64,000 bases of DNA from Ruminococcus sp. (GTDB lineage Bacteria; Bacillota; Clostridia; Oscillospirales; Ruminococcaceae): the NCBI GenBank assembly GCA_017516465.1, contig JAFXCR010000043.1:1-64000 (forward strand), given 5' to 3'. The translations under genes were made by a program, and so were the position numbers. The notes beneath the pieces are model-generated. The model had not been told where the DNA came from. It did not search any database and saw only the letters and a program-made list of their open reading frames with translations. Positions 58,428-63,597 of the stretch are shown piece after piece. The stretch's first letter is position 1. Every line of letters starts with the position of its first letter.

Positions 58428-59119
58428 AAAAATTTCTGACAATTCTGCTTGCTATGTCGATGATGTCATGTACATTTGCTTCATGCGGAAAAAAAGAAAG
58501 CGACAAGGAAGATAAGAAAAACTTATCTACTGAGGAGGAAGTTCATCCCGCAGTCGGCAGATGGGTACCCGTTGAAAAAGAAGATACAATCTTTGATATA
58601 CACAGCGAGGATGAGGCTTATATCTGTGCTGTGCAGGATCTTTCCGATGATCTTTACTTTGAAGATGATAACTTTGTGTTCAGCGGAATGGAATTTTCCG
58701 GCGATAATTACGATTTCGACGGTGAAACCTTTGTGCTCCATGCTTTCAGTGATAACGACCTTACCATGGAGAAAACAGACGGCAGCGAGGAACTTTACGG
58801 TGAATTCCAATGGATAAGCGGCGATCTCTACGATGATATTGTGAGAGATTTTACTGAAGCTTCCGTTACTGACGGATATGATATTACGGGCGATAATATA
58901 AAAACATTCATGATATGCAATGATGAAGGTACATCCCTTGAAATCAGGATAGGAGTATCTGATTTTGAGCTTACAGATGAGACAATTACTATCAGCGGAT
59001 CAATTTTCGGTGGTGAAGAACTCAGGGACGCTGAATATACCGTTGACGGCGATAAAATGATTATTATAAATGCTCAGAGTGAAGAAATAGAGCTTGAAAG
59101 AATCACGGACGATGAATGA
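58424..59119 (+). CDS. Acidic lipoprotein of unknown function
   Basis: A 231-residue protein coupled to rmd by an ATGA overlap. Signal peptide with lipobox FASC (Cys20), then a strongly acidic mature region rich in beta-type strands, with two similar halves around GDNYDFDGETFVLHAF and AEYTVDGDKMIIINAQSEEI. No family recognised. Could help assemble or bind the polysaccharide at the surface, from context only. Confidence 0.75.
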   Translation: MKKFLTILLAMSMMSCTFASCGKKESDKEDKKNLSTEEEVHPAVGRWVPVEKEDTIFDIHSEDEAYICAVQDLSDDLYFEDDNFVFSGMEFSGDNYDFDGETFVLHAFSDNDLTMEKTDGSEELYGEFQWISGDLYDDIVRDFTEASVTDGYDITGDNIKTFMICNDEGTSLEIRIGVSDFELTDETITISGSIFGGEELRDAEYTVDGDKMIIINAQSEEIELERITDDE

Positions 59120-59129
59120 GGTGAAAATT

Positions 59130-59492
59130 ATGGCAGAAACTAAGCTTACCAACGAATTTGTCCGTTCCTTTGACGGACATGAAAAGATCAGGATGACAAA
59201 GGCGGCAGAAAAGCTTACTGAGTTCGGAGAAAAGCAGAACGATGTGAATGAGGCTCTTGCCGGAAATATCAACAGTCTTATAAAGCGTGTATGTGCTCTG
59301 GAGGACAAACAGGAAAAAAATACCGAGATCATGAAGAAAATCGCCAATGAGCTTGCTGCTTTCAAGCGTGAGCTTGACAGGGTAAGACTTACGGAAAAGC
59401 TGAATTCCGGTGCAATCGAAAGACTATCGAATGCTATGTCTCTGGCAGCTGCTCCGGCTGAGGAAGGCTCTGGCGAAAACGGTGAGGAATAA
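59130..59492 (+). CDS. Small coiled-coil protein
   Basis: A 120-residue charged protein, start at ATG 59130 (GAGGTG upstream; two earlier in-frame ATGs lie inside the preceding gene). Heptad-like sequence from about residue 45 to 95 (ALEDKQEKNTEIMKKIANEL) indicates a coiled coil; the tail is Gly/Glu-rich. No membrane segment. It follows the lipoprotein by 10 bp. Function unknown. Confidence 0.7.
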   Translation: MAETKLTNEFVRSFDGHEKIRMTKAAEKLTEFGEKQNDVNEALAGNINSLIKRVCALEDKQEKNTEIMKKIANELAAFKRELDRVRLTEKLNSGAIERLSNAMSLAAAPAEEGSGENGEE

Positions 59493-59831: not shown

Positions 59832-59852
59832 TTAGAATGAGGGTGCTTGTAT

Positions 59853-60539
59853 ATGGATATTGCTGAAAAGCTCCTTGAGGAGCTTGAATGCCGTGTAGCC
59901 TTTACCATACCGATTTTCGGGGGAATCCCCGTTCCTGAGTCATGCGTTATGACGTGGGGAATAATGGTAGTTGTCGTGCTTGTTTCAATGCTGATTGTCA
60001 GAAGGCTGAAAACTGTTCCCACCGGAGCACAATGTCTGCTGGAAATCGGCATAAACTGGATGAATAACTTTTTCCTTGACATTCTCGGTCCGAAGGGGAA
60101 GAAATATCTTCCGATCCTTGAAACGATGCTGATTTACATAGGTATCTCGAATATAGTCGGCATAGTGGGGCTTCGTCCGCCGACAAAGGATCTGGGAGTT
60201 ACCGCAACACTTGCGATATTTGCAATACTGCTGATACAGTTCTGCGGTATAAAGGAACGTGGCGGAAAAGGCTGGCTTCACAGCTTTATCGAACCTATGC
60301 CGCTGCTTTTGCCAATCAAGATACTTGAGCTTTTCATCAAGCCGCTTTCGCTCTGTATGCGTCTTTTCGGAAACATTCTCGGTGCATTCGTTGTAATGGA
60401 GCTTATAAGGCTTGTTGTTCCGGTGGGAATTCCGCTGGTTCTCGGCTTGTATTTTGACATCTTCGACGGATGTATTCAGGCTTATGTATTTGTATTTCTC
60501 ACCTCTTTGTTCATGGCTGAGGCAATGGAAGAGGAATAA
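59853..60539 (+). CDS. atpB: ATP synthase F0 subunit a
   Basis: Membrane stator subunit that forms the ion half-channels beside the c-ring. The 228 residues have five to six helices, with LCMRLFGNILGAFVVMELIR carrying the essential Arg region and ending QAYVFVFLTSLFMAEA. Start at ATG 59853 (GAGGG 9 nt upstream); a TTG two codons earlier is too close. First gene of the operon; no atpI is present upstream. Confidence 0.95.
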   Translation: MDIAEKLLEELECRVAFTIPIFGGIPVPESCVMTWGIMVVVVLVSMLIVRRLKTVPTGAQCLLEIGINWMNNFFLDILGPKGKKYLPILETMLIYIGISNIVGIVGLRPPTKDLGVTATLAIFAILLIQFCGIKERGGKGWLHSFIEPMPLLLPIKILELFIKPLSLCMRLFGNILGAFVVMELIRLVVPVGIPLVLGLYFDIFDGCIQAYVFVFLTSLFMAEAMEEE

Positions 60540-60597: not shown

Positions 60598-60819
60598 ATG
60601 GGAGCAATCGCATTGGGTGCCGCTATTGCCGTTCTTACGGGAGCAGGCGCAGGAATTGGAATCGGAATTGCAACATCAAAGGCGGCTGAGGCAATCGCAC
60701 GTCAGCCGGAAGCCAAGGGAGATATCAACAAAGCACTTCTTTTAGGATGCGCTCTTGCTGAAGCTACGGCTATCTATGGCTTTGTAATCGCAATACTCAT
60801 CATCTTTTTCCTTAAATAA
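60598..60819 (+). CDS. atpE: ATP synthase F0 subunit c, copy 1
   Basis: Rotor-ring subunit, 73 residues, two helices. Loop motif ARQPEAKGDI and ion-binding Glu in CALAEATAIYG. The helix-1 position that is Gln in Na+-type rings (GVGQG) is Ile here (GIGIG), and the residue after the Glu is Ala rather than Ser, which points to H+ coupling. TGGAGG precedes the ATG. The protein is identical to that of the next gene. Confidence 0.96.
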   Translation: MGAIALGAAIAVLTGAGAGIGIGIATSKAAEAIARQPEAKGDINKALLLGCALAEATAIYGFVIAILIIFFLK

Positions 60820-60833
60820 AACGGAGGTTTACT

Positions 60834-61055
60834 ATGGGAGCAATCGCATTGGGTGCCGCTATTGCCGTTCTTACGGGAGCAGGTGCAGGAATCGGAATCG
60901 GAATTGCAACATCAAAGGCGGCTGAGGCAATCGCACGTCAGCCGGAAGCCAAGGGAGATATCAACAAAGCACTTCTTTTAGGATGTGCTCTTGCTGAAGC
61001 TACGGCTATCTATGGCTTTGTAATCGCAATACTCATCATCTTTTTCCTTAAGTAA
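60834..61055 (+). CDS. atpE: ATP synthase F0 subunit c, copy 2
   Basis: A tandem duplicate 14 bp after copy 1, with its own CGGAGG. The 73-residue product is identical; the DNA differs at only four third-codon positions over 222 bp. This indicates recent duplication or gene conversion and may serve to increase c-subunit dosage for the ring (inference). Confidence 0.96.
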   Translation: MGAIALGAAIAVLTGAGAGIGIGIATSKAAEAIARQPEAKGDINKALLLGCALAEATAIYGFVIAILIIFFLK

Positions 61056-61075: not shown

Positions 61076-61564
61076 ATGCTGGATATAGACCACTGGAACT
61101 TTATATGGGCGGCAGTAAATTTCATACTGCTGTTCATATTGCTTAAGATATTCCTTTTCAAGCCGGTCGGAAAGATCATGGATGAACGTACCCGTACTAT
61201 TCAGGATGATCTCGATGCCGCAAAGAAATCCAAGGAAGAAGCCGAGGCTTTGAAAAAGGAGTATGAGGACAGCATCAGCGAGGCAAAGGAAAAGGCTCAG
61301 GAAATTATCATGAAAGCTCACGAGGACGCAGAATCGGAGAAATCTGCCATTCTGAAAAAATCTCAGGAGGAAGCAGACCAGATGATTTCTGACGCAAACA
61401 AGACTATCGAAAACGAGCGTAAGAGAGTTCTTGCACAGGCACAGACTCAGATCGCCGACCTTGCTATTGAAGCTGCCTCGAAAATTATCGGAGAAAATCT
61501 TGATGACGAGAAAAACCGCCGCCTTGTGGATGAATTCTTATCCGATGAGGAGGGTGATGCCTGA
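61076..61564 (+). CDS. atpF: ATP synthase F0 subunit b
   Basis: Peripheral stalk subunit, 162 residues. One N-terminal helix (WNFIWAAVNFILLFILLKIFL) anchors a long charged coiled coil (about residues 35-150) that reaches the delta domain on top of F1. The last base overlaps the start of the delta-alpha fusion by 1 bp (TGATG). AGGAGG lies upstream of the ATG. Confidence 0.95.
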   Translation: MLDIDHWNFIWAAVNFILLFILLKIFLFKPVGKIMDERTRTIQDDLDAAKKSKEEAEALKKEYEDSISEAKEKAQEIIMKAHEDAESEKSAILKKSQEEADQMISDANKTIENERKRVLAQAQTQIADLAIEAASKIIGENLDDEKNRRLVDEFLSDEEGDA

Positions 61565-63597
61565 TGAGTACCGCAGATAAAGAACTTCTCAGGGAGCTTC
61601 TTCGTCTTGATATCACTCAGGATGACGCAGAAGCCGCAAAGCATATCTTTACAGATTGTAAAGATGTTGCTGATACTCTTTCAAATCCGCTTGTTACCTC
61701 GGATGAAAAGCGTTCGATAATCTCACGGCTTTTTCCCGAAAGTCTGCACAGATTTATGCTTGGTGCAGTAAAGAACAGAAGTATAGAGTCTGTTCCTGCC
61801 GCACTGGAAGAATACAATGACGCACTTCTTGAAAAGCAGGGATGTATCAAGGCTGTTGTCCGCTATGTTACGCCGCTTACGGAGAGTCAGCAGGCTGATC
61901 TCCGCAGATATATAATGGAAAAATTCGTCAAGGATGATATTTCCATAGAGTACAGGCAGGATCCCGATATCATAGGAGGATTCATCCTCAATGCAGGCGA
62001 TGTCGAGTACGATAAGAGTTACCGCAGTGCTCTCAGCCGCATGAAGGAAAGCCTTCACAGTAGAGCTACTGAATATACAGGCAGTAATAAAGAAAAAGCT
62101 GTTATCGGCTCTATGAACGATATAATCTCCGTGCTTAAAACGGAGATTCAGGACTTTGATGTAAAATCCGGAGCCACTGAAACCGGATTCATAACACGTC
62201 TCGGAGATGGAATTGCTCAGGTAAGAGGAATGAATTCCGTTATGTATGGCGAGCTTGTTGAGTTTGAAACAGGAATCAGAGGAATCGTACAGAATATAGA
62301 GGAAAAAACAACAGGCATAGTGCTTCTTGGCGATGACTACGGACTTACAGAAGGCTCCTCCGTTGCCAGAACGGGAAAACGTGCCGGAATCGGCGTGAGC
62401 AGCGAACTTATCGGACGTGTCGTTGATGCTCTCGGCGCACCAGTTGACGGCGGAGAAAGAATAATCGCCGAGGACTACTTTCCTATTGAACGTGAGGCTC
62501 CCGGAGTTATCGAGAGAAAGCCGGTAAATGTTCCGCTTGAGACGGGAATTCTTGCCATTGACTCCATGTTCCCCATCGGACGCGGACAGCGTGAGCTTAT
62601 TATCGGTGACAGACAGACAGGAAAGACCTCAATTGCCATCGATACTATCATAAATCAGAAGGACAAGAACATTATCTGCGTATATGTGGCTATCGGTCAG
62701 AAGAATTCTACCGTTGCACAGATCGTGGGAACTCTCAGGAAGCACGGAGCCATGGATCACACTGTTGTAGTGTGTGCTTCTGCAAGCGATCCGGCACCGT
62801 TTCAGTATATAGCCCCCTATTCGGGAACTGCGATCGCTGAATATTTCATGTCAAAGGGACATGATGTCCTCATTGTATACGATGATCTTTCAAAGCACGC
62901 GGTAGCATACCGTGCGATGTCGCTGCTGCTTCACAGACCTCCGGGACGTGAGGCATATCCGGGCGATGTTTTCTATCTGCATTCAAGGCTTCTGGAACGC
63001 TCCTGCCGCCTTGATGATGAACACGGCGGAGGATCGCTGACGGCACTGCCGGTTATAGAGACTCTTGCCGGAGATATCTCCGCATATATTCCGACAAACG
63101 TTATTTCTATCACGGACGGACAGATTTTCCTTGAAAGCGAGCTTTTCAATGCCGGACAGCGTCCTGCGGTGAATTATGGACTTTCTGTGTCCCGTGTAGG
63201 AGGAGCCGCCCAGACAAAGGCAATGAAAAAAGCTGCCGGAAATCTCCGTATCGACCTTGCTCAGTACAAGGAAATGGAAATCTTCACGCAGTTTTCGTCT
63301 GAGCTTGACCAGTCCACTACGGAGCTTCTTGCTCACGGAAGAATGCTTACAGAGCTGCTCAAACAGCCTTTGTGCAGACCCCTGCCGCATTATGAACAGG
63401 TAATTCTGCTTTATGCGGCACAGCACGGATTTTTCAAGGGGATTCCCGCCGCAGAAATCAAGGATTACTGTGACGATCTTATGAGCTACATCGGCACATA
63501 CGGACAGGATATCATAGCGGAAATCGAGCAGAACAAGGTGCTTACTGACGACCTTTCCGAGAGAATCGAGCGGATTGTCACTGCATTCGAGGAATAA
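61564..63597 (+). CDS. atpHA: Natural fusion of ATP synthase delta and alpha subunits
   Basis: One 677-codon frame. Residues 1-165 are a delta/OSCP subunit (LLRLDITQDDAEAA, NPLVTSDEKRSII, VTPLTESQQADL, DPDIIGGFILNAGD). An 18-residue linker follows. Residues 184-677 are a whole alpha subunit: RLGDGIAQVRG, Walker A GDRQTGKT at 348-355, LIVYDDLSKHAVAYR, PGREAYPGD and the C-terminal helices. Alpha normally starts near where M184 lies; its ATG (62113) has no ribosome site, unlike other genes in the operon. Delta normally binds alpha N-termini at the top of F1, so the joined ends are spatially compatible, but three alpha per F1 would bring three delta domains. A sequencing error or internal start cannot be fully excluded. 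Confidence 0.9.
   Translation: MSTADKELLRELLRLDITQDDAEAAKHIFTDCKDVADTLSNPLVTSDEKRSIISRLFPESLHRFMLGAVKNRSIESVPAALEEYNDALLEKQGCIKAVVRYVTPLTESQQADLRRYIMEKFVKDDISIEYRQDPDIIGGFILNAGDVEYDKSYRSALSRMKESLHSRATEYTGSNKEKAVIGSMNDIISVLKTEIQDFDVKSGATETGFITRLGDGIAQVRGMNSVMYGELVEFETGIRGIVQNIEEKTTGIVLLGDDYGLTEGSSVARTGKRAGIGVSSELIGRVVDALGAPVDGGERIIAEDYFPIEREAPGVIERKPVNVPLETGILAIDSMFPIGRGQRELIIGDRQTGKTSIAIDTIINQKDKNIICVYVAIGQKNSTVAQIVGTLRKHGAMDHTVVVCASASDPAPFQYIAPYSGTAIAEYFMSKGHDVLIVYDDLSKHAVAYRAMSLLLHRPPGREAYPGDVFYLHSRLLERSCRLDDEHGGGSLTALPVIETLAGDISAYIPTNVISITDGQIFLESELFNAGQRPAVNYGLSVSRVGGAAQTKAMKKAAGNLRIDLAQYKEMEIFTQFSSELDQSTTELLAHGRMLTELLKQPLCRPLPHYEQVILLYAAQHGFFKGIPAAEIKDYCDDLMSYIGTYGQDIIAEIEQNKVLTDDLSERIERIVTAFEE

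What the first reader, a model, noticed from the sequence alone, without database searches (positions are those of the whole stretch)
61564..63597. Delta and alpha subunits of ATP synthase are fused in one gene
Seen: a single 677-codon frame with a complete delta domain, an 18-residue linker and a complete alpha subunit, no stop between them, and no ribosome site before the internal Met184 codon although operon neighbours have GGAGG-type sites. Known: delta caps F1 by binding alpha N-termini; F1 has three alpha and one delta; the fusion I know of is b-delta in mycobacteria. Inference: either three delta domains crowd one F1, or some products are cleaved, or internal initiation supplies free alpha. 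Any of these would be new for an F-type enzyme.
Basis: partly seen in the sequence, partly recalled or inferred. Interest (0 to 1): 0.93.

Follow-up and report, generated by a model that had tools for sequence, protein, structure and literature searches.

The report
Natural three-delta ATP synthase fusion
A Ruminococcus-like bacterium encodes two parts of its ATP-making enzyme, delta and alpha, as one protein; because the enzyme uses three alphas it would carry three deltas and is predicted to be able to hold up to three side stalks instead of one, a layout that has been built artificially but, as far as I could find, not yet shown in nature.

Summary
The fusion is real: one 677-codon frame (61564-63597) encodes a complete delta (OSCP), a linker of about 15 residues and a complete alpha. 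All 120 listed nearest proteins and 54 of 60 genomes of the genus share it. In 39 of 41 fusion genomes given to it is the only alpha gene; this genome is an exception, with a second, conventional operon. Met184 is unconserved across the genus and lacks a ribosome site, so three deltas per F1 is likeliest. Ueno et al. 2025 engineered a delta-C-domain-alpha fusion carrying up to three stalks and mentioned natural cases. The window differs by keeping the delta N-domain that they argue limits stalks to one. Relatives form a series: delta-alpha, deltaCTD-alpha, and b'-deltaCTD-alpha triple fusions whose N-terminus looks membrane-anchored, beside a separate b gene. The tree puts fusion first and N-domain loss later, about four times if never regained. 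No stoichiometry is measured. Verdict: a genuine new variant of a known kind and a testable natural multi-stalk candidate.

The parts
61564..63597 (+). delta-alpha fusion gene, 677 aa
   Evidence: conserved frame
61564..61851 (+). delta N-terminal domain (residues 1-96), predicted six-helix bundle
   Evidence: AlphaFold2 helices 3-15, 19-31, 35-40, 46-56, 59-70, 74-91, block pLDDT 70-89 over residues 1-90; HMM
61852..62067 (+). delta C-terminal domain (residues 97-168), the part that binds the b dimer in known enzymes
   Evidence: Pfam OSCP, HMM; more conserved than in separate deltas at matched alpha identity
62068..62112 (+). linker (residues 169-183), variable between species
   Evidence: junctions listed
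62113..63594 (+). alpha subunit (residues 184-677), N-terminal segment NDIISVLKTEIQDF kept
   Evidence: TIGR00962 184-676; alignment
62113..62115 (+). Met184 codon at the alpha start; no ribosome site of 4+ bases
   Evidence: 2 of 18 genus genomes, 56 of 119 close relatives
61548..61553 (+). AGGAGG ribosome site of the fusion gene, 10 nt before its ATG
61076..61564 (+). atpF, subunit b, 162 aa, overlaps the fusion start by 1 base
   Evidence: PF00430
60598..60819 (+). atpE copy 1, subunit c, 73 aa
   Evidence: PF00137
60834..61055 (+). atpE copy 2, identical protein
59847..60539 (+). atpB, subunit a, 230 aa
   Evidence: PF00119
63611..64000 (+). atpG, subunit gamma, start (303 aa in the contig), followed outside the window by beta and epsilon
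   Evidence: on L098

Best explanation
The gene encodes a single delta-alpha polypeptide that likely serves as every alpha subunit of this enzyme, so each F1 would carry three delta domains and is predicted to offer three docking sites for b dimers, allowing up to three peripheral stalks. Shown here: the fused frame, its conservation, and the absence of a separate delta or alpha in this operon. Shown elsewhere (Ueno et al. 2025): a delta C-domain fused to alpha lets up to three b2 stalks, each with its own a subunit, assemble on one F1 and about doubles H+/ATP. Inferred: that the native fusion is not cleaved, that it does not mix with the second operon's alpha, and that more than one C-domain is occupied although the N-domain is kept. 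I expect one N-domain on the axis, the other two displaced, and C-domains held in register by their own alpha. The gain would be ATP synthesis (or a steadier reverse pump) at low proton-motive force in what is likely a fermenting bacterium.
For: Fusion fixed in the lineage. Only alpha gene over the cut-off in 39 of the 41 delta-alpha genomes given. Internal starts: a ribosome site of 4+ bases before an internal start in 2 of 30 records (26 genomes), against 23 of 30 for the gene's own start. As a contrast, gamma-beta fused frames, where 1:1 stoichiometry is impossible, keep a Met before beta in 43 of 46 readable junctions of 56 rows. C-domain more constrained after fusion: at alpha identity 0.88-0.92, C-domain identity 0.81 in delta-alpha fusions (55 pairs) against 0.61 in separate deltas (37 pairs); N-domain 0.56 against 0.49. 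Phylogeny: the window's clade of 7 and 25 further rows form one wholly fused clade (99/96); inside it the N-domain was lost four times if never regained, two of these losses resting on branches under 90% bootstrap. A natural deltaCTD-alpha relative (L082, 10-558) aligns with the engineered three-stalk chain 9JC1 (10-562). Relatives go further: b'-deltaCTD-alpha triple fusions with an N-terminal hydrophobic helix, which would tie three b' subunits to each F1.
Against: This very genome has a second operon with separate delta and alpha (C10), as have G042, G021 and G034, so mixing is not excluded here. The N-domain, which Ueno et al. hold to restrict stalks to one, is kept, predicted folded, and evolves no faster than in separate deltas, so it probably still works. 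No protein, stoichiometry or structure data. Met184 is present in 56 of 119 close relatives, and 61 of 119 have some Met in that zone. G428, an independent fusion, has an ATG with AGGA at the alpha start. The ribosome-site test is weak in the triple fusions, whose own starts pass it in only 35 of 80. Gamma-beta fused frames in relatives show that a fused frame need not mean only a fused product. The AlphaFold2 model was poor outside the N-domain (mean pLDDT 43.8) and says nothing on docking.
Confidence: 0.55

Rival explanations
1. Three deltas but one stalk: the fusion is intact, one N-domain sits on the axis as in ordinary enzymes, its C-domain carries the single b2 stalk, and the other two deltas are idle passengers.
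For: N-domain retained with normal constraint and predicted folded; Ueno et al. argue the N-domain limits stalks to one.
Against: Repeated loss of the N-domain after fusion and the high constraint on the C-domain fit C-domains being used on more than one alpha.
Confidence: 0.28
2. Processing: a protease cuts the linker, giving ordinary free alpha and delta, so the complex is conventional with delta in excess.
For: The linker is short, variable and polar; gamma-beta fused frames in related bacteria would need some way of making separate products.
Against: No shared motif is visible by eye in the linkers (no formal test), and the junctions of deltaCTD-alpha and triple-fusion relatives differ from it while the fusion persists. 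Delta in threefold excess would be wasteful (inference).
Confidence: 0.1
3. Internal initiation at Met184 supplies free alpha, so an F1 holds one fusion and two plain alphas.
For: Met184 exists in the window and in 56 of 119 close relatives; G428 has an ATG with AGGA at its alpha start.
Against: No ribosome site in the window; the Met is absent in 16 of 18 genus genomes; triple fusions have a Met in that zone in 8 of 120, although 51 of 80 have an ATG somewhere in the junction, 9 with a site.
Confidence: 0.06
4. Assembly or sequencing error joins two genes.
For: The genome is a 55-contig draft.
Against: Same architecture in the 120 listed nearest proteins and 54 of 60 genomes, including named R. 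flavefaciens entries.
Confidence: 0.01

Closest known systems
Engineered deltaDeltaN-alpha fused FoF1 of Bacillus PS3 (Ueno et al. 2025, PMC12229609; PDB 9JC1; abstract and sections 4, 5, 13 read)
   Same: delta C-domain joined to the alpha N-terminus as the only alpha; shown to carry up to three b2 stalks and a subunits, H+/ATP 5.8 against 3.0
   Different: Engineered, N-domain deleted, epsilon truncated; the window is natural and keeps the N-domain
Acidaminococcus fermentans delta-alpha fusion (one passage in the same Discussion, plus UniProt G4Q3K6 and A0A1I2C5T3; its Supplementary Fig. 9 not seen)
   Same: natural delta-alpha fusion in an ATP synthase operon, proposed to be multi-stalk, untested
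   Different: N-domain said to be missing, so it is the deltaCTD-alpha type; in the main text the terms Ruminococcus, Clostrid and b-delta do not occur
Mycobacterial b-delta fusion (b-delta chains such as 7JG5 seen; delta/b Rosetta Stone in PMC5709465, passages read)
   Same: delta fused to another stator subunit in the operon
   Different: joined to b; alpha separate
N-ATPase (alternate F1F0), whose b model TIGR03321 matches a delta C-domain
   Same: delta reduced to its C-domain and fused
   Different: fused to b; window alpha scores 605 against the 750.5 cut-off of the alternate alpha model
Eukaryotic V-ATPase with three EG peripheral stalks (recalled)
   Same: three stalks on three non-catalytic subunits
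   Different: unrelated stalk proteins, different rotor and collar

Membership tests
F-type ATP synthase alpha (atpA) | full-length match above the curated cut-off | tested here: met
   TIGR00962 745.5 bits, cut-off 484.45, residues 184-676
ATP synthase delta / OSCP | Pfam OSCP above cut-off over both domains | tested here: met
   PF00213 91.1 bits, cut-off 22.3, residues 15-164; best solved relative PS3 delta 6N2Y, residues 11-164
Multi-stalk deltaDeltaN-alpha fused FoF1 (Ueno et al. 2025) | delta C-domain covalently joined to the alpha N-terminus | tested here: met
   in the reading frame: (protein not seen)
Multi-stalk deltaDeltaN-alpha fused FoF1 (Ueno et al. 2025) | delta N-domain absent | tested here: not met
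   N-domain present and predicted folded; absent in deltaCTD-alpha relatives such as L082
Multi-stalk deltaDeltaN-alpha fused FoF1 (Ueno et al. 2025) | no separate delta or alpha available to the complex | tested here: inconclusive
   none in this operon, but this genome has both on C10; no other alpha in 39 of the 41 delta-alpha genomes
Multi-stalk deltaDeltaN-alpha fused FoF1 (Ueno et al. 2025) | more than one b2 stalk and a subunit per complex, raised H+/ATP | not testable with these tools
   needs purified enzyme
N-ATPase (alternate F1F0) | alpha above the TIGR03324 cut-off | tested here: not met
   605 bits, cut-off 750.5
Mycobacterial-type b-delta fusion | delta fused to b | tested here: not met
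   b is a separate 162-aa gene at 61076-61564

The most novel reading that the evidence does not exclude
Clostridia evolved F-type ATP synthases with three peripheral stalks. Fusing delta to alpha put a stalk-docking domain on each of the three alphas; the delta N-domain was then discarded several times; and in another branch a membrane-anchored b' was fused on as well, so that b'-deltaCTD-alpha triple fusions covalently tie three stalks, and probably three a subunits, to one F1, raising the ion/ATP ratio by subunit number rather than c-ring size. The window shows the first step caught in the act, with three N-domains still present.
Probability: 0.45. Interest if true: 0.93.

Novelty: new variant of a known kind. 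Interest (0 to 1): 0.8.

Why it matters
Text-book F-type enzymes have one delta, one b dimer and one a subunit, which fixes ions per ATP by c-ring size alone. If these natural fusions carry two or three stalks, stator copy number becomes a second evolutionary handle on the ion/ATP ratio, and it could explain how organisms with weak proton-motive force run the enzyme. The series of intermediates makes the claim of Ueno et al., that the delta N-domain limits stalk number, testable in nature.

Tried and rejected
Delta helix 1 lost: I first read the OSCP match starting at profile position 19 as loss of helix 1; the structure prediction shows a helix at 3-15, so it is only diverged. N-domain decaying: a first comparison suggested faster N-domain change after fusion; with pairs matched for alpha identity the N-domain is normal and the C-domain is slower. 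That comparison dropped 12 of 57 separate-delta loci whose domain cut failed; its pairs are not independent. Two origins of the triple fusion: the quick tree of 79 rows gave two, the better model on 53 of those 79 rows (26 left out to save time, 5 of 11 triple fusions among them) gave one (93/84, 92% of bootstraps); left open. Fold search with the whole window model listed only ATP synthase alpha-type matches, so it does not test the delta part. The triple-fusion model is usable only for the b' helices and the C-domain (mean pLDDT 58.3). Paper searches for a Ruminococcus or delta-alpha fusion outside Ueno et al. showed none in their listings (in only the best 15, 15 and 12 of 134, 19 and 501 papers were listed).

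Full report
Observation. The window holds a, c, c, b, delta-alpha and the start of gamma in one operon; the contig continues with gamma (303 aa), beta and epsilon. The fusion frame 61564-63597 encodes OSCP (15-164) and a full alpha (184-676 by TIGR00962). Its start has AGGAGG 10 nt upstream and overlaps the b stop codon by one base.

Second enzyme. The same genome has a complete conventional operon a, c, b, delta (179 aa), alpha (497 aa), gamma, beta, epsilon on contig C10. Its c subunit has Glu in both helices and an ETT motif, which I recall as a sodium-type pattern; the window's c lacks the first Glu. The C10 alpha groups with those of G021, G034 and G042, so it is probably native rather than contamination. 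Of the 41 delta-alpha genomes given, only G000 and G042 have such a second alpha over the cut-off; G021 and G034, not given to that call, also have one.

Conservation. The 120 best hits of the window protein (7992 scored, 120 listed) are all 673-679 aa with the four Pfam domains. In 60 genomes of the genus, 54 have the delta match inside an alpha-length frame (counted by hand; the six others are named under the observation check).

Order-wide anatomy. OSCP was sought in 395 genomes of the order; 237 matched. I re-searched 80 of the 237, mostly the lower-scoring ones, to see frame lengths. By frame length and match position the 80 fall into 10 full-delta-alpha, 33 deltaCTD-alpha (one, G148, with two C-domains), 11 with frames of 736-784 aa, 7 with a stand-alone C-domain of 73-78 codons, 12 conventional and 7 unclear. 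Eighty regions were then read (anatomy). Of these, 79 alpha genes were typed: 15 full-delta-alpha (T2), 29 deltaCTD-alpha (T4), 11 b'-deltaCTD-alpha (T5), 7 stand-alone C-domain (T3), 1 unusual and 16 conventional; L096, whose alpha frame is broken, was left out. The regions were chosen for their type, so these numbers are not frequencies.

Triple fusion. T5 proteins have a hydrophobic N-terminal helix, a coiled-coil-like b' part, a delta C-domain and alpha, and lie next to a separate b gene. Pfam finds ATP-synt_B, OSCP and alpha domains in L061; in the divergent L062 ATP-synt_B is not found. A scan of one genome per species with a b'-deltaCTD alignment gave 141 relatives; the best 80 were kept. 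All 80 have alpha in the same frame (76 whole, 4 cut by a contig end), which is the independent result, since b' and C-domain were the query; 75 of 80 have a separate b just upstream and 75 of 80 a membrane-like stretch in the first 31 residues. The titles shown are MAGs, many named after goat, sheep, deer, buffalo or horse gut samples. If these products are not cut, three b' per F1 are unavoidable.

Phylum. A delta-alpha junction profile (A1) against 398 genomes of the phylum gave 20 genomes with an uninterrupted fused frame, counting the window and one frame at a contig end (at most 8 candidates per genome were scored and the list is cut). Neighbouring delta and alpha genes in one frame with a stop between them were not counted.

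Evolution. A careful alpha tree of 53 of the 79 rows places the window's clade of 7 and 25 further T2/T4 rows in one wholly fused clade (99/96). Within it T2 and T4 are interleaved; with no regain of the N-domain the tree needs four losses (L083/L165, L131, L167, and the clade of 15), two of them resting on branches of 82 and 89% bootstrap. L078 and L077 are T2 fusions inside unfused surroundings, hence likely separate events; L135 and the triple fusions add more. The 79-row quick tree needs at least 7 changes between fused and unfused and 8 between with and without N-domain.

Is the product fused? In 30 T2 records (26 genomes), 2 (G020 and G428) have an in-frame internal start with a ribosome site of 4 or more bases, against 23 of 30 for the own start; in G428 that ATG sits at the alpha start. 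Met184 is present in 56 of 119 readable close relatives as a variable linker position, and 61 of 119 have some Met in the zone; in the genus it is in 2 of 18. T4 is looser: 9 of 29 have some start with a site, 3 an ATG. In 80 T5 loci, 51 have an ATG in the junction and 9 an ATG with a site, but the own starts pass the test in only 35 of 80, so the test is weak there; a Met at the usual distance of the alpha start occurs in 8 of 120 T5 proteins. As a contrast, gamma-beta frames keep a Met before beta in 43 of 46 readable junctions out of 56 rows. Cleavage cannot be judged from sequence.

Constraint. At alpha identity 0.88-0.92, T2 pairs (55) have N-domain identity 0.56 and C-domain 0.81; separate-delta pairs (37) have 0.49 and 0.61. 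So fusion goes with a more constrained C-domain and an ordinary N-domain. The pairs are not independent.

Mechanism. Ueno et al. 2025 (abstract and sections 4, 5 and 13 read) deleted the PS3 delta N-domain and joined the C-domain to alpha. They found 2.2-fold a and 1.8-fold b, H+/ATP 5.8 against 3.0, and cryo-EM particles with 0, 1, 2 and 3 stalks at 15, 51, 26 and 8%. A natural T4 protein aligns along nearly the whole engineered chain. The window works like this design in carrying one C-domain per alpha, but fails its second defining feature, absence of the N-domain; I therefore do not file it as a member. Three N-domains cannot all take the axial seat, so either one does and the rest hang free, or they pack in a new way (inference). 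Whether this allows extra stalks is the open question.

Verdict. The fusion is genuine, old within its clade and widespread, not found in this form in the papers searched, and anticipated by one engineering paper. New variant of a known kind.

Noticed in passing
L169 188-2548 (G173), L250 5444-7804 (G128): Gamma and beta (rotor and catalytic subunit) form one 786-codon frame in two species of one genus; by a script filter 56 of the 120 listed hits look like gamma-beta frames, and a Met before beta is kept in 43 of 46 readable junctions. Both DNA examples have a GTG with an AGGA motif at the beta start. How free gamma is made is unclear.
   Followed up: partly
window 60598-60819 and 60834-61055: Two tandem atpE genes with identical proteins; 17 of 26 genus operons examined have two c genes, 8 of the 17 with identical proteins.
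   Followed up: partly
L097 (G000 contig C10, 177-6480): A second, conventional ATP synthase operon in the window's genome whose c subunit has a recalled sodium-type pattern.
   Followed up: partly
L071 5041-7068 (G148): Two tandem delta C-domains in front of alpha in one 675-aa frame.
   Followed up: partly
L085-L091: Operons with a stand-alone 71-74-aa delta C-domain and no N-domain, followed by an alpha of ordinary length.
   Followed up: partly
L071-L074, L076, L080, L082, L084: Subunit c frames of 111-133 aa with about 43-65 residues before the c match; start codons not verified.
   Followed up: no
L096 3381-5400 (G033): The fused frame is broken inside alpha (576 + 124 aa), possibly a draft-genome error.
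   Followed up: no
window 59094-59492: 132-aa ORF upstream of atpB with a weak DUF1664 match below the cut-off.
   Followed up: no
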